Shown here: positions 2 to 6,630 of the stretch, one piece after another
Numbering within the stretch: the first letter of the stretch is position 1
Layout of the letters: every line of letters begins with the position of its first letter
Position numbers and translations under genes: made by a program
The notes under the pieces: model-generated
What the model was told of the DNA's origin: nothing
Databases searched by the model: none
What the model saw: only the letters and a program-made list of their open reading frames with translations
Source of the DNA: Candidatus Poseidoniaceae archaeon
GTDB lineage: Archaea > Thermoplasmatota > Poseidoniia > Poseidoniales > Poseidoniaceae
Direction of reading: 5' to 3'
NCBI GenBank assembly: GCA_022425585.1
Contig: JAKMFF010000315.1
Location: 1-6,630 of the forward strand
Length of the DNA stretch: 6,630 bases

Positions 2-1075
2 TACAATGGTGATGCAAAACAATTTGACCGGTCAAAGTGCGGCGTGGTTTTTGCCAATGCTTTAGGAGGGGAGAATCGTAACCTCTCAAACATTCGAGTA
101 TGGTCTAATCATACCAAGAACGTCGCCATCAAACACGGGCTGCCACAAGACCAAGCTGAAGTATTTCGTGAAGAGATAGTCGAACATTCACCAAGAATTG
201 ACGAGGACACAATGCCTGGTGAACTGGCCAATGTAGTATCTGGTAGGGTTGCTAATTTACTCGATTTGCAAGGACCAAACTACACCACAGATGCTGCATG
301 CGCATCCTCTATGGCGGCAATTCTTGACGCCTGCCGACTATTGCAAAGTAGGCAGGTGGATTTGATGCTGGCGGGTGCTGCAGACCGCACTATGGATCCT
401 GCAACCTACGCTAAATTCAGCGCTATTGGCGCATTGTCACCAAGCCACTCAACACCGTTTGATGCTAGAGCCAATGGTTTTGTAATGGGAGAAGGAGCAG
501 GCGTTTTAATTCTCAAAAGATTATCAGACGCAATTGATGACGATGACGAAATCCACGCGGTAATTCGCGGAGTCGGTAGCTCTTCAGACGGAAGGGGCAA
601 GGGTATTACTGCACCAAGTCAAAGGGGGCAAATCCAAGCGATTTCTAGGGCTTACAATCAAGCAGGATACGATGCTTCATCAGTTGAATTAGTCGAGGCA
701 CATGGTACTTCGACAAAAGTCGGTGATGCAACAGAATTGTCTTCATTGTCTACTTTGTGGACTGGTTTGACAGGTGGCGACCATGTTGCAGTTGGCTCAA
801 TCAAATCACAAATTGGCCATCTTAAAGCGGCAGCCGGAATAGCAGGCGTCATCAAAGCAGTAATGGCGCTACATCACGCAACTATACCTCCGTCTGCTGG
901 ATTCGAGACACCAAATCCAACAGTACAATGGAATGAAATTCCATTTTTTGTCCCAACTCAAGCCAGAGATTGGCCCAGGCCATTGGAACATCCGCGTCGA
1001 GCTGGTATCTCTGCATTCGGTTTTGGGGGGACAAATTTTCACATAGCGTTAGAAGGCTATGAGCCAGAATACCAC
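2..1075 (+). other. KS1: beta-ketoacyl synthase domain, N-terminus missing
   Basis: Residues 1 to about 358 form most of a thiolase-fold ketosynthase, which condenses an acyl group held on its cysteine with malonyl-ACP. The nucleophile is Cys100 in DAACASS (codon 299-301). The two catalytic histidines are His234 in EAHGTSTKVGD (701-703) and His273 in GHLKAAAG (818-820). Other family marks are the segment PFDARANGFVMGEGAG and the C-terminal GISAFGFGGTNFH (1004-1042). The full Cys-His-His triad with normal spacing argues for an active enzyme. GKGITAP after the GEGAG block and the general wording recall the PfaA ketosynthase. The window begins inside the domain, so roughly 70 to 120 N-terminal residues should lie upstream, a figure inferred from usual KS length. 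It is followed by a KS-AT linker and AT, the standard condensing pair. Confidence 0.95.
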
Positions 1076-4000
1076 ACTCCGATTGCCAATAGCTGGCAGC
1101 AAAAATGGAGTGGCAATGTCCCAAAACCATCAGTTTCATCCATTCTAGATGCCAATGCAAACCCAACAATGACTCATGAAGAATTGAAATCAATTGAAGG
1201 TGGCATTTTGTTGTTATCTGGGGGCAGTATTGAAAACCTGATGGCGAAACTCGCTGATGTATCATTTGATGGACCATCTTTCGATGAGGATGCTAGTGGC
1301 CGCAGATTGTCTGTTGAGTTGATGCAAGTTTCAGATTTCAACAAATCAGACACCTATCGTATGGCCATAATCGCTACTAGTTGGGCAGATTATGACAAAC
1401 GGGTCGGTCTTGCATTAAAAGCCATGGAAGACAGTAACAAATGGGGCTTTTTACAGTCTCAAGGTGTTATGATTACCAATGAGCCAATCCTTCCATCAAA
1501 AGCCAAGATTGCCCACATGTATCCTGGTCAAGGTAGCCAATATGTCGGCATGACATACGACCTAAACAAACGTTACACTTCGGTACAAAAAGTATGGGAT
1601 AAATCCGATGAAACCATGGTCGAGGTGCTGGACGGTGAGACTTTGTCTAGCTTCGTCTTGCGGACCAATCTTTCAAAACAGGAATTGATTGAATCAGAGC
1701 ACAAGCTTAAGCAAACAGAATACACTCAACCGGCCATGTTAACCGCAGATTTGGCCATTGAACGATTGCTCAATGCGCATGGACAAACGCCAGATATGGT
1801 GGCTGGGCACTCACTTGGCGAGTATGCTGCATTGATGTCTTCGGGGATATTGAATATGGACGGCGCATTGCGGGCCTCAGCAGCTAGGGGTACAGAAATG
1901 GGTTCTGTGCAAATAGATGACAAAGGATTGATGGCCAGTGTGACCGCACCATACAAAGAGGTTGAAAAAGTCCTTAATTCTGCAGATGGATATGTTATTG
2001 CAGCCAACAAAAACTCTCCTAAAATGACCGTAATTGCTGGAGAAAGCGAGGCAGTAAAGGGTGTAATGAAATCATTTGAATCCAAAGGATTCTCAACTAC
2101 TCAATTAGCAACCTCCCACGCATTCCACTCCCGTATCGTCGCACCAGCCAATGAACCACTGCGAAGATTCCTTGAAACCTTGGAGATAAATTGGCCCCAA
2201 ATTCCAATTACGGCAAATTTTGATGGCGAATTTTACGAAATGTCTGGGGCTGATTCCAAAACAGCAGTTCTCGATAAATTAGCCCCTCAAATGGCTTCTT
2301 CAGTAGAGTGGACTTCACAAATCGAAAAGATGTATGATTCGGGTGCGAGAGTTTTCATTGAAGTAGGGCCAAAAAGAGCATTGACGATGTTTGCCACTCA
2401 AATCTTAGAAGGCAAGCCACATTTGCCAATCATGACTAATCACCCTAAGCAAGGAGGCATTGCTTCTTTCCTTGGCGCAATGGCCGGATTATATCTTGCT
2501 GGCAGAACTCTTCAATGGCCGTCTGGTACATCAGAGGAATTATCTGAAGCCTTTAGAGCAGGGCCAATAGAAGCACACAGTCAATTAAAGCATGCTGTAA
2601 AGCAATCATCCAATAATGACCTTAATTCAAGGGCCAAACCGCTCCCAACTCAATCTGCTGCTAAGTCTTCTGCTGGGGTAAGTGTTACGACGATAGAAGT
2701 CTCCATTGAAGATGCCAAGAATGCCTACCTCGGAGATTGTTTATCACCAATAACGGGATATCCAGCAAAGTTCTGTAATGGCATGGTAAACTTAAGGGAA
2801 GTACTTGGATTATCCAATTCGCAAATAACTCAATTAATCGCTAAAATTAGTAATGAATGTGATACAGATAGCGAGTTTGATATCTCCAAGGCAGAAGTAG
2901 TGCAAGATTTCTCAAGGTGGATTAGAGCCCCACCCAAATCTTACCTTTCCAAAGCAATAGCCACTGCGCCAATATCTCAAATGACAGTTAGTAATTTTGC
3001 AAATAATAATGATTCTAGGGAATCTGATCCAATCGTCATCAGTGGCATTTCATTAGGTTTGCCAGGTGGCGAAAAGGTGTTTTCTGAAGATACGTTTGAA
3101 CGTTTAGTAAGAGGTGAGACCTGCATCACTGAGGTAAGTGACGAGTACAAACAACGGCTATTGGATAAAAACATAGTTCGCTTAATCAAAGGTAGAGACG
3201 GTTCAGTAAACATGGAAAAAGCCACCCAGTTCAGCGATATACCACAACTTGCGGGAATTAAGGGAGCATTTGATTTGGCGGCTGAATTTGGTATCGATCC
3301 AAAAGCAGTCATGGCTTGGGACATTACCACCCAACTTTCTGTTGCTGCAGGTCTGTTAGCACTTCGAGACGCTGGAATCCCGCTTACGCCAGTCGAACAA
3401 ACCGGCAAGGGCGGTCTACGTTTGATTACCAATTGGCAAATCCCTCAAATTCAAAGAGATCGAACGGGAATAATATTTGCCTCTTGCTTCCCGGGATTGC
3501 AGATGGCAATGAAACATGCTAAGAATAATGGAGATGATGGCGAGGGTCGTTTTGATCGAAGGTATCTATTCCAAATTCTTAATATGGGCCATTCTCAATT
3601 TGCTCAATATACTGGAATTAGAGGTCCAAATACCACGCTGAATTTAGCTTGCGCTTCAGCGACTGCAGCGTTTAGTACTGCAGAGGATTGGCTAGAAAAT
3701 GGTAGAGCAGATAGAGTGGTAATTATCTCTGCGGATGACGTTACTGGTGAAGACCTCTGGGAATGGATGGGTAGTGGATTTGCTGCCTCAGGCGCCGCTT
3801 CAACAGGTGATAAGGTAGAGGAGTCTGCTTTACCATTTGACAAGAGAAGGAATGGTATGGTGCTTGGAATGGGCGCAGCGGCATTTGTTGTTGAACGTAA
3901 TTCTATGGCTCAAGAGCGTGGGGTTCAGCCAATTGCAGAATTATTGGGAACTAAGATTTCTAATTCAGCATATCATGGAACAAGACTTGATGTTGAACAT

Positions 4001-6630
4001 GTCGCACAAACTGTCAACCAATTTATCGGCACTATGGAGGCTAAATGGAATCTAGATAGACACCAAATAGCACCGGAAACGGTCTTTTTCTCACATGAAA
4101 CCTATACTCCAGCCCGTGGTGGGTCTGCACAATCAGAAGTCAAAGCACTTAGAGATACCTTTGGGCCAAGTGCTGATAAATTGATTATTGCCAATACCAA
4201 AGGGTTCACTGGACACCCAATGGGGGTTGGGATAGAAGATGCCAGCATGTACTATGGTTTGTTAACCGGGCGTATTCCACCAATTGCCAATTACCGTGAA
4301 AAAGATCCAGAGCTGGGTGAACTAAATCTGTCAAAAGGTGGAGAATATCCAGAATTAAAGTACGGACTACGATTTGGTGCAGGATTCGGTTCGCAAATCG
4401 CATTATCTTTAGCAAGGAAATGGGATGTAACTGGTGAACGAATTGATGGTTCAAAATTCATGGCTTGGATTAGACAACTTGCTCAATCTGATGATGTAGT
4501 TTTACGTGTTCTTGATGGTAAATTGGTTTCCTACGTTGATGGTTCAGATAATCTTCACGGCGGTATTCAAGGTAAGGCTTGGAATGTTACCAACGAGTTT
4601 GAAGGCTTGCCAATTAACCAGCCAGTAGTTGCTGAACAAGTTCCCGAGAAGACTATCACTGAAGTGCAACAAGTAACAGAGAAGGTTGTTGTTGCACCAA
4701 CAGTTCAGCAAAACTCAGGTGGCGAAGATGTTGTTGATGCAGTTATCGATGTAGTTGTGAAACATACTGGCTATCCTGCTGACTTTGTTGAACTAGACCA
4801 AGACCTTGAAGGCGAATTAGGTATTGATACAGTAAAACAGGCAGAAATTATGGCCGAGATTCGTAGTCGTTTTGGCTTACCAGTTGACGAAGATTTCGTG
4901 CTTGCTGATTATCCAACACTAAACCACATGATCGGCTATATCGATAAGATGTCTGGAGGAACTTCCACTGCTGCACAAGCAGTTGTAACACCAGTGGAGG
5001 CGGCAGTTGAAATGGCACAAGACATAGTTAGCGATGTTGTTGAAAAAGTTGCTCAAGCAAAGCCTCAGGCTATGCTGGTAAATGATGATGATTTAATTCA
5101 AACAGTAATCGAAGTAGTTGTTGAACACACCGGATACCCCGCAGATTTTATTGAATTAGATCAAGATTTGGAAGGAGAACTTGGAATTGATACAGTCAAG
5201 CAGGCAGAAATAATGGCAGATATTAGAAGTAAATTCTCCTTACCAGTCGATGAAGACTTCGTATTATCTGATTATCCAACATTGAACCACATGATTGCCT
5301 ATATTCACAAAATGACCGGCAATGCACCCGCTTCTGCCACACCTTCAGTCCCTGAAGCAGTGGCAGAGGAAACTCCAATTCCGCTTGATATGGACCAACC
5401 AGAGGTAGTTTCGACGCCTCCAAGTGAAATGTCTGGAAATGCGGATATCCAATCAAAATTGATTGACGTTGTGGTGAAACATACTGGTTATCCAGCCGAC
5501 TTCATTGAAATGGACCAAGACCTTGAAGGTGAGCTTGTAATTGATACAGTAAAACAAGCAGAAATAATGGCCGAGGTCAGAGATATATTCCAACTTCCAG
5601 TCGATGAAGACTTTATTTTAGGCGATCATCCAACTCTCAATCACTTTACGGCTTATATCATAAAAATGCAAGGCGGCCCAATTCAAGAACCGCCGGCAAG
5701 TCAACAAATCGATACACTGGATTTGCCGGAACAGTTGGAAATGCCTGAACAAGATAAATCATCCAATGCCAGCATTTCTTCACAATCTACAGTGAACCCT
5801 TCAGGTTGCCGAAGATGGCAAGTAGAAGTCGAGGAATGTCTAGGTTTAGATGAGCCAATAGAGCTGTCGGGAACTGTAGTTGTTACCGATGATGGGTGGG
5901 GTATTGCCGAGGAATTGTGCACTCTTTTGGAGACACGAGGGTTAGCAGCTATTAGAGTTGGATTTGAATCAGAAATTCGGGATATGTCAATCCAAGTTGA
6001 AGGCACTAGGACTGTGTTGAGGGCAGATCCAGCCAATACTGAACACATTGCGTTAGTCGGTGAAGAATTAAACAAATCGAAAATATCTGGTGTCATTCAT
6101 TTAGCAGCCCTAAAGTTGGCAGGCGTTGAATGGGAAGAAGACACTTACCCATCGTCACAAATATCCCTCGCAGCCCATGGGTGGTTTGCCCTGTTGAAAC
6201 AACTCGATGGTCAACTTGCCACTTTAGATTCGGGAATAGTTGCCTCGGTAACCACTCTGGATGGTAGGCACGGCAACAAGGGCGAACTATTCAATTCCAT
6301 ACAATGCTCGGCAAGCGGTGTAACTAAGTCCTACTCATTTGAACAACCTCATCTCCGAACGAGGGCTTTAGATTTGCACCCAGAAATCGTCTTGGATGCA
6401 GCTCATGCAGCAGAAATTATTGACAACGATTTGTTTGCAATTGGTGGCGATGTTGAGATTGGCATTGACCGTGACGGCAGAAGGTGGACTCTGGTCGCCT
6501 TTGATGAGCAATTGGAAGGCGAACGTCAACCATTGGTTAACAAAGATACTTGGTTAGTCTCAGGGGGTGGTTCAGGAGTTACCGCAGCCTCAATAATTGG
6601 TGTGGCTGCTGCTAGTACAGACGCCAATGC
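2..6630 (+). CDS. Partial type I PKS / PUFA-synthase-like megasynthase: KS-AT-(ACP-like)-KS-ACP-ACP-ACP-KR, open at both ends
   Basis: One uninterrupted frame of 2209 complete codons crosses the window; the last two bases begin another codon. No in-frame stop was found on reading every line, and the frame never shifts, so this is a single intact polypeptide fragment. Catalytic landmarks in order are KS1 Cys100/His234/His273, AT Ser604/Arg629/His709, KS2 Cys1217/His1365/His1405, carrier attachment positions Thr1610, Thr1731 and Thr1849, and a KR glycine motif near residue 2188. The product should be a cytosolic multienzyme that builds a carbon chain by decarboxylative condensation with beta-keto reduction; I see no signal peptide or membrane segment. 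The KS-AT...ACPn-KR order resembles PfaA of PUFA synthases, but a second KS is inserted between AT and the carriers. The product is unknown: a lipid or PUFA-like chain is inferred from architecture alone. Dehydratase, enoylreductase or release domains, if present, lie outside the window. Confidence 0.95.
1076..1501 (+). other. KS-AT linker region
   Basis: About 142 residues join KS1 to the AT. The first part is variable, with Pro, Ser and Asn. The second part carries GGILLLSGGSIENL (from about base 1200), matching the position and style of the structured adapter that packs between KS and AT in type I synthases, where a hydrophobic LLLSA-type strand is followed by a helix. A later YRMAIIATSWADYDKR stretch resembles the YRLAVVA-type strand seen shortly before the AT. 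No catalytic motif is visible. Linker identity is inferred from position and pattern, not from a strong family signature. Confidence 0.7.
1502..2525 (+). other. AT: malonyl-CoA:ACP acyltransferase domain
   Basis: Residues 501 to about 842 form an acyltransferase that should move malonyl from CoA to the carrier domains. The oxyanion-side motif PGQGSQYVGM begins at residue 508. TEYTQPAM, a common AT signature, sits near base 1720. The nucleophile is Ser604 in GHSLGEY (1811-1813). Arg629 (1886-1888) lies exactly 25 residues after the serine, the spacing of Ser92 and Arg117 in E. coli FabD, where the arginine binds the malonyl carboxylate. His709 in HAFHS (2126-2128) completes the dyad. HAFHS is the classic malonyl-type motif, in contrast to YASH for methylmalonyl. 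FIEVGPKRALT near base 2354 marks the C-terminal part. It is the only AT visible and may serve every carrier. Substrate choice is inferred from motifs only. Confidence 0.95.
2526..2701 (+). other. Low-complexity linker after AT
   Basis: About 59 residues rich in Ser, Ala, Asn, Gln and Lys, with short runs such as KQSSNN and QSAAKSS. It has the look of a flexible tether between folded domains and shows no catalytic motif. It directly precedes the carrier-like segment, just as the linkers before the true carriers further downstream do. Confidence 0.6.
2702..2923 (+). other. Cryptic, probably inactive acyl-carrier-protein-like domain (Asn at attachment site)
   Basis: Residues about 901 to 974 align with the three downstream carriers. 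From TGYPA (residue 918, base 2753) the first 19 positions match ACP1 without gaps: TGYPA, F at position 7, L at 14 and LG at 18-19 are all shared. Helix III agrees at Ala and Ile (positions 30 and 32), and after a two-residue shorter loop the end reads FDIS...WI against FVLA...YI. Where ACP1 has IDTVK, this copy has LSNSQ, so the attachment position is Asn939 (2816-2818), which cannot carry phosphopantetheine; Ser938 and Ser940 flank it. The acidic residues of the normal carrier helix II region are also mostly gone. I infer a decayed or structural carrier left from an ancestral KS-AT-ACP module. It could instead be a docking or spacer domain that kept the four-helix fold. Confidence 0.65.
2924..3025 (+). 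other. Short linker before KS2
   Basis: About 34 residues (RAPPKS, then SKAIATAP and an Asn-rich NNND run) with no recognisable motif. It joins the carrier-like segment to the start of KS2 at DPIVISG. Confidence 0.5.
3026..4426 (+). other. KS2: divergent beta-ketoacyl synthase domain
   Basis: Residues 1009 to about 1475 form a second ketosynthase, complete at both ends. It opens with DPIVISGISLGLPGG, the usual KS start, and has the nucleophile Cys1217 in NLACASATAA (3650-3652). The first histidine block is unusual: HETYTPARGGSAQSE with His1365 (4094-4096), in place of EAHGTGTxxGDxxE. The second is NTKGFTGHPMGVG with Lys1400 and His1405 (4214-4216), closer to fungal-FAS-type TGHPKG than to IGHLEAAAG. 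GEGAG is replaced by GMGA, and the final GFGGTNxH by GAGFGSQIAL. The Cys-His-His triad is therefore kept while the surrounding loops differ, which suggests a working enzyme with another acyl pocket or partner. From memory, similar wording occurs in large bacterial KS/ACP/SDR proteins. It has no AT of its own and is followed by the carriers. Confidence 0.9.
4427..4723 (+). other. KS2-to-ACP linker
   Basis: About 99 residues. The first half looks structured (FMAWIRQLAQ, then VLRVLDGKLVSYVDG), like the tail that often follows this kind of KS. The second half is rich in Val, Gln, Glu, Thr and Pro (PEKTITEVQQ, VVVAPTVQQ) and looks like a flexible tether into the first carrier. No catalytic residues are evident. 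Confidence 0.6.
4724..4951 (+). other. ACP1: acyl carrier protein domain with Thr at the attachment site
   Basis: Residues 1575 to 1650, about 76 long, the normal size of a carrier domain. It holds growing chains on a 4'-phosphopantetheine arm. The conserved core runs KHTGYPADF, DQDLEGELGID, then TVKQAEIMAEIR, and ends YPTLNHMIGYI, the usual four-helix carrier pattern; the DLGIDSIKRVEI motif of PUFA-synthase carriers is the closest well-known relative. The modified serine is replaced by Thr1610 (4829-4831). Whether a phosphopantetheinyl transferase accepts this threonine cannot be seen from sequence. It is the first of three consecutive carriers. Confidence 0.9.
4952..5083 (+). other. ACP1-ACP2 linker
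   Basis: A 44-residue Ala, Val, Gln and Pro-rich tether, with stretches such as TPVEAAVEMAQ and KVAQAKPQA. Alanine/proline-rich spacers of this kind separate tandem carriers in PfaA proteins and let each carrier swing. Confidence 0.6.
5084..5314 (+). other. ACP2: acyl carrier protein domain with Thr at the attachment site
   Basis: Residues 1695 to 1771. Over a 59-residue core it matches ACP1 at 53 positions, with conservative changes such as Val/Ile, Glu/Asp and Arg/Lys. The motif LGIDTVKQAEIM is identical to ACP1, and the attachment position is Thr1731 (5192-5194), 121 residues after that of ACP1. Only 26 of the 53 shared residues use the same codon, so the two copies are not a recent duplication, or have been held together by selection on protein sequence. 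Confidence 0.9.
5315..5443 (+). other. ACP2-ACP3 linker
   Basis: A 43-residue Pro, Ala and Glu-rich spacer (APASATPSVPEAVAEE, later STPPSEMSGN). Its length nearly equals the previous linker, but the sequence is unrelated, as expected for a spacer under weak sequence constraint. Confidence 0.6.
5444..5668 (+). other. ACP3: diverged acyl carrier protein domain with Thr at the attachment site
   Basis: Residues 1815 to 1889. Over the 59-residue core it matches ACP1 at 46 positions and ACP2 at 47, so it is the outlier of the three. The attachment position is again Thr1849 (5546-5548). The glycine before IDT is replaced by Val1846 (ELVIDTVK), YPTLNHM is HPTLNHF, and helix III differs (EVRDIFQ). 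It is followed by a Gln and Pro-rich linker into the ketoreductase region. It is probably still a folded carrier, but the loop leading to the attachment site may differ in shape. Confidence 0.88.
5669..5809 (+). other. ACP3-KR linker
   Basis: About 47 residues rich in Gln, Ser, Pro and Glu (QEPPASQQIDT, SSNASISSQST), without a recognisable motif. It is a likely flexible tether from the last carrier to the ketoreductase region. Confidence 0.55.
5810..6630 (+). other. KR: ketoreductase (SDR) region, C-terminal part cut by window end
   Basis: Residues 1937 to 2209. The first about 245 residues look like the non-catalytic structural half of a PKS/PfaA-type ketoreductase: a strand-helix unit with VVVTDDGWGIAEEL (from 5876), then SGVIHLAAL (6086), a VASVTTLDGRHG strand and an RTRALDLHPE strand. 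The catalytic half then opens with TWLVSGGGSGVTAAS (6548 onward), whose glycine-rich loop (from residue 2188) is the NADPH-binding TGGxxGxT-type motif of short-chain dehydrogenases. The catalytic Ser, Tyr and Lys lie beyond the window, so activity and stereochemistry cannot be judged. It should reduce the beta-ketoacyl group on the carriers to beta-hydroxyacyl. Ser in place of Thr before the glycines (SGGGSG) is a minor variant. Position after tandem carriers matches PfaA. Confidence 0.85.

What the first reader, a model, noticed from the sequence alone, without database searches (positions are those of the whole stretch)
4724..5668. All three tandem carrier domains have Thr where the phosphopantetheine Ser is expected
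Seen directly: each carrier reads IDTVKQAE (Thr1610, Thr1731, Thr1849), whereas carriers normally have DS at this place (DSIKRVE in PfaA). Established: 4'-phosphopantetheinyl transferases modify serine, and Ser-to-Ala changes abolish carrier function; threonine as a natural acceptor is not the usual case. The codons are all aca, so a change to serine would need one base change in each. Because surrounding residues are highly conserved across three copies, the Thr looks selected, not decayed. Either a dedicated transferase accepts Thr, or these domains tether intermediates in another way. From memory, DTVKQAE carriers also occur beside KS2-like domains in other large bacterial proteins, so this may define a family.
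Basis: partly seen in the sequence, partly recalled or inferred. Interest (0 to 1): 0.75.

Follow-up and report, generated by a model that had tools for sequence, protein, structure and literature searches.

The report
Acyl carriers with threonine attachment sites
A giant lipid-making enzyme of ocean archaea, and its bacterial relatives, have threonine where the swinging cofactor arm is expected to hang on serine, and the archaeal gene lies beside a gene for an arm-attaching enzyme, so nature probably uses a substitution that is known to kill the E. coli carrier.

Summary
In detail: three tandem carriers in one open frame read IDTVKQAE, Thr codons (ACA) at 4829, 5192 and 5546. The window is part of a roughly 2935-aa KS-AT-KS-ACP3-KR-DH synthase of Ca. 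Poseidoniaceae (Marine Group IIa archaea), which looks like an archaeal form of the bacterial "Type R" secondary-lipid synthase.

Thr is a family trait, not decay. Of 1,038 carriers read in 341 relatives, 957 have Thr, 81 Ser, none another residue, and none of the 341 mixes them. In 14 of 14 genomes of relatives, the only carriers found (E <= 0.001) are in this synthase and the only phosphopantetheinyl transferase (PPTase) lies beside it; 55 of 55 loci that include the synthase 3' end have the PPTase next.

Orthologues with the same synthase-PPTase order read Ser instead, probably by two switches (DSIKQAE, DSVKQAE), so Thr and Ser behave as equivalents. In E. coli ACP the S36T mutant is reported to be unmodifiable and dead. 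Best reading: Thr is the phosphopantetheine acceptor, armed by the neighbouring PPTase. Evidence is genomic only; mass spectrometry is needed. The synthase kind is known; the Thr acceptor is a new variant as far as my searches reach.

The parts
2..6628 (+). one open frame, part (about residues 128-2336) of a synthase of about 2935 aa; runs off both window ends
   Evidence: full-length near relatives P0015 and L001 6470-15277
2..1087 (+). first ketosynthase (5' part missing), Cys motif 296-310, His motifs 692-715 and 803-832
   Evidence: PF00109, PF02801, PF16197; motifs located
1517..2410 (+). acyltransferase, Ser motif AGHSLGEY 1802-1825
   Evidence: PF00698 residues 506-803
2702..2923 (+). 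degenerate carrier-like stretch (TGYPAKFC...LGLSNS) without the DT/DS acceptor
   Evidence: position; the same stretch matches the carrier profile in relatives, with D or E at the acceptor column (12 matches)
3152..4501 (+). second ketosynthase-like domain (called CLF in the Type R literature), Cys 3644-3664 and His motifs 4085-4123, 4205-4225 in place
   Evidence: weak ACP_syn_III match
4730..4948 (+). carrier domain 1, acceptor Thr1610 codon 4829-4831
   Evidence: PF00550; model with the Thr as first residue of helix II
5093..5311 (+). carrier domain 2, acceptor Thr1731 codon 5192-5194
   Evidence: PF00550
5447..5665 (+). carrier domain 3, acceptor Thr1849 codon 5546-5548
   Evidence: PF00550
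6542..6628 (+). start of the ketoreductase nucleotide-binding part (WLVSGGGSGVTA), cut off by the window end
   Evidence: sequence; PF08659 in full-length P0015

Best explanation
The three domains are working acyl carriers whose 4'-phosphopantetheine arm is attached to threonine instead of serine. The arm is put on by a dedicated Sfp-type phosphopantetheinyl transferase encoded by the next gene downstream. The armed carriers then pass acyl intermediates between the KS, AT, KS2, KR and DH domains of the same protein and a FabI-type enoyl reductase encoded just upstream, so that the operon is a self-contained type I fatty-acid or secondary-lipid synthase. Shown by sequence: the Thr, its conservation, the gene order in relatives, one PPTase and no other carrier match in the genomes tested, and the predicted folds. 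Inferred: that the arm is on this Thr, that this PPTase puts it there, and that the product is a fatty acyl chain.
For: Only Thr or Ser is allowed: 957 Thr, 81 Ser, 0 other of 1,038 carriers in 341 proteins, each protein uniform. PPTase next to the synthase in 55 of 55 loci with the 3' end (4 of these built the profile), in 27 of 32 loci (the other 5 are contigs that end inside the synthase) and in 4 of 5 loci of the DSV group (the fifth is cut). Single PF01648 match in 14 of 14 genomes and 39 of 39 PF00550 matches inside this protein. PPTase keeps D-x-E, W..KE..K and hShxH motifs (52 of 52 for the D, E, K, E, K and H columns); model pLDDT 88, best PDB match human PPTase with ACP, then Sfp with a carrier. 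Carrier model folds like ACPs with the Thr at the start of helix II. Ser and Thr replace one another in orthologous operons. PPTase and carriers co-occur: both in 70, PPTase alone in 6, carriers alone in 9, neither in 207 of 292 genomes of the phylum.
Against: E. coli ACP S36T is reported to be unmodifiable and non-functional (PMC3340395, passages). No biochemical evidence for Thr. No residue of the PPTase explains Thr acceptance: the Gln that goes with Thr in Poseidoniia is absent from 8 of 8 fused PPTases of other Thermoplasmatota with Thr carriers. G233, with the same synthase and PPTase, also has a Ser carrier on another contig, and G054 has extra Ser carriers, so exclusivity is not universal. 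The genomes are mostly metagenome assemblies and may be incomplete. The PPTases of the DSV Ser group have lost the His of hShxH (4 of 4), which I cannot explain.
Confidence: 0.83

Rival explanations
1. The Thr domains are not armed; they are structural or docking modules, and intermediates travel as CoA thioesters or on another carrier. The PPTase acts on something else.
For: S36T is dead in E. coli. The same proteins hold a degenerate carrier-like stretch without an acceptor (window 2702-2923), so carrier folds without an arm are tolerated here.
Against: The degenerate stretch shows what an armless carrier drifts to (D, E), whereas the three carriers never do. No other carrier match was found for the PPTase in 14 of 14 genomes, and only fragments under the cut-off at E <= 10 in 4 of them. 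Orthologues carry canonical DS.
Confidence: 0.09
2. The arm, or the acyl chain itself, is attached to another conserved residue of the carrier (for example the Thr of HTGYP, the Thr of PTLNH or the Lys of VKQAE), and the helix II Thr is only structural.
For: Those residues are also invariant in the 30 carriers aligned.
Against: Only the canonical position changes between Thr and Ser as a whole-protein switch; the predicted fold puts it where known acceptors lie.
Confidence: 0.05
3. Local decay or a sequencing or frame artefact.
For: None beyond the departure from Ser.
Against: Open frame; Thr in 220 of 220 acceptor-covering carriers of the 80 loci, by four Thr codons; 396 of 396 in the new proteins of a search from a bacterial query.
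Confidence: 0.01

Closest known systems
Type R secondary lipid synthase of Shulse and Allen 2011 (Koribacter, Solibacter, Elusimicrobium, Roseiflexus; PMC3098273, passages and section 8 read)
   Same: One PfaA-like protein with KS-MAT-CLF-ACP(3-6)-KR followed by a PPTase gene with an hShxH motif; relatives named Roseiflexus, Caldilineaceae and others come up with the same carriers.
   Different: Archaeal host; FabI-type reductase gene just upstream; the second ketosynthase keeps Cys-His-His; Thr acceptor, on which that paper is silent (0 occurrences of 'serine' and of 'threonine').
Ser-acceptor carriers (PF00550), for example E. coli ACP
   Same: Family match and predicted fold (6lvu apo-ACP, TM-score 0.91 by target length).
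   Different: Thr at the acceptor position; the same change in E. coli ACP, S36T, is reported unmodifiable and dead (PMC3340395).
Sfp-type PPTases (Sfp 4mrt, human AASDHPPT 2cg5)
   Same: Predicted fold and conserved catalytic motifs of the neighbouring gene product.
   Different: 15 and 18% identity to these two; a C-terminal GCxT/A element in 51 of 52 and a Gln before the catalytic Lys in 51 of 52 (one unread) of the PPTases from the loci; predicted acceptor is Thr.
PfaA of polyunsaturated fatty acid synthases (TIGR02813)
   Same: Best NCBIfam model of the window, 666 bits; KS-AT-tandem ACP-KR order.
   Different: Below the curated cut-off of 1010 bits (window partial); second ketosynthase in the same protein; carriers DTVKQAE (PfaA motif DSIKRVE is from the finding and recall, not from a call).

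Membership tests
Type R secondary lipid synthase | KS-MAT-CLF-ACP(3-6)-KR in one protein | tested here: met
   (KR seen whole only in full-length P0015)
Type R secondary lipid synthase | PPTase gene downstream | tested here: met
   55 of 55 loci of relatives with the synthase 3' end; the window itself ends before it
Type R secondary lipid synthase | PPTase with the hShxH (P1b') motif | tested here: met
   SISIGH and variants in the alignment; His column 52 of 52
Type R secondary lipid synthase | KS phylogeny together with the published Type R proteins | tested here: inconclusive
   Nearest bacterial rows include proteins named Roseiflexus, but the published Type R sequences were not placed on the tree
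Type R secondary lipid synthase | Second KS is a chain length factor | tested here: inconclusive
   It keeps the Cys and both His motifs, so it may be an active ketosynthase
4'-phosphopantetheine carrier domain (PF00550) | Sequence family and four-helix fold | tested here: met
   81 bits, 3 stretches; (model pLDDT 78)
4'-phosphopantetheine carrier domain (PF00550) | Serine as acceptor | tested here: not met
   Thr in 3 of 3
4'-phosphopantetheine carrier domain (PF00550) | Carries the phosphopantetheine arm | not testable with these tools
   Needs mass spectrometry
Sfp-type PPTase (neighbouring gene) | PPTase fold and catalytic motifs | tested here: met
   PF01648 above cut-off; no PDB match by sequence at E 0.01
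Sfp-type PPTase (neighbouring gene) | Transferase activity on the adjacent carriers | not testable with these tools
   Needs a bench assay
PfaA (TIGR02813) | Curated NCBIfam cut-off, 1010.1 bits | tested here: inconclusive
   666.1 bits, but the window holds only part of the protein

The most novel reading that the evidence does not exclude
A large, old family of lipid synthases in archaea and bacteria works with phosphopantetheinyl-threonine carriers made by dedicated transferases; threonine is the older state inside the family, and archaeal lineages went over to serine in the carriers of the whole protein. The serine rule of PPTases would then be a property of the enzymes studied so far, not of the chemistry.
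Probability: 0.75. Interest if true: 0.82.

Novelty: new variant of a known kind. Interest (0 to 1): 0.74.

Why it matters
The arm is held to go on serine, and an E. coli S36T carrier serves as a dead control (PMC3340395). Here the same substitution is the usual state of about a thousand carriers read, in the archaeal cases with a transferase gene next door. If the arm is on Thr, annotation rules that call Thr carriers inactive are wrong, carrier-PPTase pairs with another acceptor become available for labelling and engineering, and the open question of how Marine Group II archaea, which lack the archaeal glycerol-phosphate enzyme, could make acyl lipids (PMC6461757, PMC7852524, passages read) gains a concrete candidate operon: enoyl reductase, synthase, PPTase. 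The Thr and Ser orthologues of sister lineages make the test direct.

Tried and rejected
A PPTase signature for Thr. A Gln just before the catalytic Lys goes with Thr carriers in Poseidoniia (63 of 63 readable: 51 of 52 from the loci, one unread; 11; G542) and is absent with Ser (0 of 19 readable: 12 Ser, 3 Gly, 4 Leu; one truncated). But 8 of 8 fused PPTases of other Thermoplasmatota with Thr carriers lack it (KEAFTK, KEAAAK, KEAYLK, KEAVLK and the like), so it is not required. The C-terminal GCxT/A element follows kinship, not Thr (0 of 10 Thr-carrier genomes of the Thalassarchaeaceae side have it). Kept as leads only.

A single origin of Ser. Parsimony needs two changes; an AU test on 41 of the 112 rows weakly rejects one clade (p 0.042; the group was named after the tree was seen). 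The following residue (Ile or Val) also differs. Not settled. Pattern searches for the DSV group in the 148 genomes of G293's family found none; it turned up in other genomes of the class.

Virus origin: no pattern match in viral contigs. The window's own genome: none held. Literature: (open-licence PMC papers only) listed nothing on a natural Thr acceptor or on this synthase in Marine Group II; subscription journals were not searched. I recall, from no call, a 1989 paper on spinach ACP with Thr or Cys at the acceptor, not modified.

Rows dropped before counts: one search set aside 10 stretches (5 cut off; 4 that by position lie in the degenerate stretch; 1 DTVKQAL, a Thr); of 346 proteins 3 had no readable acceptor and 2 no carrier match. 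Its pattern fixed the neighbours (D before, E after), so a carrier that lost those would be missed. One search's 15 'A' hits are a non-carrier string (LDAVHAAE type). In one search, 2 of 80 loci had no match and 3 only cut-off ones. One search used a narrower filter, reached 43 of 80 loci and was replaced. One search drew its words from the carrier region, so its Thr count is biased; started from the KS2 domain for that reason, but list only the best 80, 120 and 120.
Full report
WHAT IS THERE. The window is one open reading frame on the + strand, 2..6628, without a stop. Pfam finds a ketosynthase, an acyltransferase and three PP-binding domains. Between acyltransferase and carriers lies a second ketosynthase-like domain with its Cys and two His motifs in place. 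The three carriers read ELGIDTVKQAE, ELGIDTVKQAE and ELVIDTVKQAE, with ACA codons for Thr1610, Thr1731 and Thr1849 at 4829, 5192 and 5546.

WHOSE IT IS. The nearest named loci, 98% identical over the second ketosynthase, are from MAGs titled Ca. Poseidoniales, Euryarchaeota and Ca. Poseidoniaceae archaeon (L001, L002, L003), that is Marine Group IIa. All 80 loci kept by that scan have titles of this order or of uncultured Euryarchaeota, among them a chromosome-scale MG-II record (L041). No genome is held for the window, so statements on neighbours come from relatives. In L001 the synthase frame is 2935 aa; the full-length relative P0015 (94% identical in the carrier region) adds KR and a dehydratase (motif HAIEGVPYHP).

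GENE NEIGHBOURS. Directly upstream is an enoyl-ACP reductase of the FabI kind (L001 5543-6457; PF13561, 1.7e-68; best solved relative an enoyl-ACP reductase, 1ulu). Directly downstream is a PPTase of about 260 aa (PF01648). A profile from four loci finds the PPTase next to the synthase in 55 of 55 loci that include the synthase 3' end (the four included); the other 25 of 80 loci end inside the synthase. FabI is found in 61 of 80; the other 19 loci begin inside the synthase or less than 0.5 kb before it. The PPTase keeps D-x-E, W..KE..K and hShxH motifs. Its AlphaFold model (pLDDT 88) matches the human PPTase in complex with ACP (2cg5) first and Sfp with a carrier (4mrt) second. By sequence alone it had no PDB match at E 0.01, and the NCBIfam PPTase models score it far below their cut-offs.

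EXCLUSIVITY. In 14 of 14 genomes that hold such loci (15 asked for, L005's genome not held) there is one PF01648 match, and all 39 PF00550 matches lie in the frame of this one protein, both at E <= 0.001. At E <= 10 in 4 of these genomes, 12 of 16 PF00550 matches are in the synthase; the other 4 are fragments of 22 to 31 of 67 positions under the cut-off. One of those holds a GLDSL string in a 197-aa frame that I take by eye, untested, for a SAP-like domain. PF01648 still gives one match per genome. In 292 genomes of the phylum, both families are present in 70, PPTase alone in 6, carriers alone in 9, neither in 207. Exceptions: G233, with the same synthase and PPTase, has a second long frame on another contig with a Ser carrier (GLDSLAAVE), gene or contaminant I cannot tell; G054 has two small Ser carriers and a second PPTase besides its Thr synthase.

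IS THR FIXED? Three searches gave 346 proteins. A carrier profile reads 1,038 acceptor positions in 341 of them: 957 Thr, 81 Ser, 0 other; 300 proteins all Thr, 41 all Ser, none mixed. By search: 459 of 459 Thr (words from the carrier region, so biased); the new proteins, from a bacterial query by its KS2 domain, 396 of 396 Thr (names seen include Roseiflexus, Caldilineaceae, Anaerolinea, Deltaproteobacteria, Myxococcales); the new proteins, from an archaeal Ser query by its KS2 domain, 102 Thr and 81 Ser. Each search lists only its best 120 of more than 3,000. In the 80 loci, 220 of 220 carriers that cover the acceptor are Thr. Several other genomes of the phylum have synthases with the PPTase in the same long frame and carriers DTVKQ[AV]E; one of them, G041, mixes one DSVKQVE with three DTVKQVE, the only mixed protein I saw. 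A further frame, in G061, reads DSVTHVE. Unrelated carriers in the phylum, 15 of 15 read by position, have Ser. A cultured bacterium, Nonomuraea gerenzanensis, has a relative in which my pattern finds one carrier, DLGVDTVKQAE (no genes are listed there, and carriers of other patterns were not sought).

THE NATURAL EXPERIMENT. On the Thalassarchaeaceae side of the order (names) part of the genomes have the orthologous synthase with LGIDSIKQAE carriers. In L114 it lies between fabI and a PPTase (profile matches), after frames that by eye resemble the TatD-like and TBP-like genes of L001. Of 27 loci with a PPTase, 16 go with DSI carriers and 11 with DTV carriers (one of these, from G366, a genome with both kinds, is of the Poseidoniaceae type). 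A further group of the class, outside G293's family, reads LGVDSVKQAE, with a PPTase next door in 4 of 4 loci that reach it. On a tree of the AT-KS2 region, which leaves out the three carriers, 33 bacterial rows and the other Thermoplasmatota are Thr (the mixed G041 not counted), and Ser needs two changes inside the archaeal part (0 of 500 shuffles as low; quick method, long branches flagged). A single Ser origin is weakly rejected (p 0.042). The direction Thr to Ser rests on a root among the bacteria, which I chose; if the wider PfaA family outside has Ser (recalled), Thr arose near the base of this family.

MECHANISM. Established: PPTases move phosphopantetheine from CoA to a hydroxyl at the start of helix II of a carrier. 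The carrier model (pLDDT 78) puts the Thr as first residue of helix II, in a fold closest to ACPs. Inference: the neighbouring PPTase, for which no other carrier was found in the genomes tested, transfers the arm to this Thr. The published counter-case is clear: E. coli ACP S36T is described as unmodifiable and does not support growth (PMC3340395, passages). The enzymes of this family must then differ from AcpS in how they house the extra methyl group. I did not find the determinant: the Gln before the catalytic Lys follows Thr inside Poseidoniia but not outside.

COMPARISON WITH WHAT IS KNOWN. Shulse and Allen (PMC3098273; passages and the whole of section 8 read) describe a Type R cluster: one PfaA homologue, KS-MAT-CLF-ACP(3-6)-KR, followed by a PPTase with the hShxH motif, in Acidobacteria, Elusimicrobia and Roseiflexus, product unknown. 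The window's protein and its neighbours meet these features, so it works like a Type R synthase; membership by phylogeny with the published proteins was not tested. Two papers (PMC6461757, PMC7852524, passages) report that Marine Group II lacks the archaeal glycerol-phosphate enzyme and has bacterial-type lipid genes. The synthase was found in 205 of 339 genomes of the class and in 38 of 118 of G293's family, so it is unlikely to be the sole fatty-acid source of the whole group. No paper on a natural Thr acceptor was listed by the searches named under Tried and rejected.

VERDICT. The synthase kind is known; the threonine acceptor is a new variant of a known kind, well supported by genomics, unproven at the bench and directly testable.

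Noticed in passing
window 2702-2923: Degenerate carrier-like stretch between acyltransferase and second ketosynthase, without an acceptor; in relatives it matches the carrier profile with D or E at the acceptor column.
   Followed up: partly
L161, L162, L163, L164 (PPTase frames): PPTases beside the DSVKQAE carriers read FSIST or FSISS where the others have the His of hShxH (4 of 4).
   Followed up: no
L097, L099, L100, L104, L105, L106, L108, L109: In other genomes of the phylum the PPTase lies in the same long frame as the Thr carriers; L097 and L104 also have a FabI-like frame.
   Followed up: partly
L098: One synthase (G041) mixes one DSVKQVE carrier with three DTVKQVE carriers.
   Followed up: no
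L116 (G233 contig C24): A genome with the Thr synthase has a second long frame with a Ser carrier (GLDSLAAVE); gene or contamination not resolved.
   Followed up: no
G293's family: Only 38 of 118 genomes of this family match the second ketosynthase at E 1e-50; absence or incomplete assemblies not told apart.
   Followed up: no
L001 2966-3499 and 3499-4392: A TBP-domain protein and a TatD-like DNase are encoded two to three genes upstream of the synthase.
   Followed up: no
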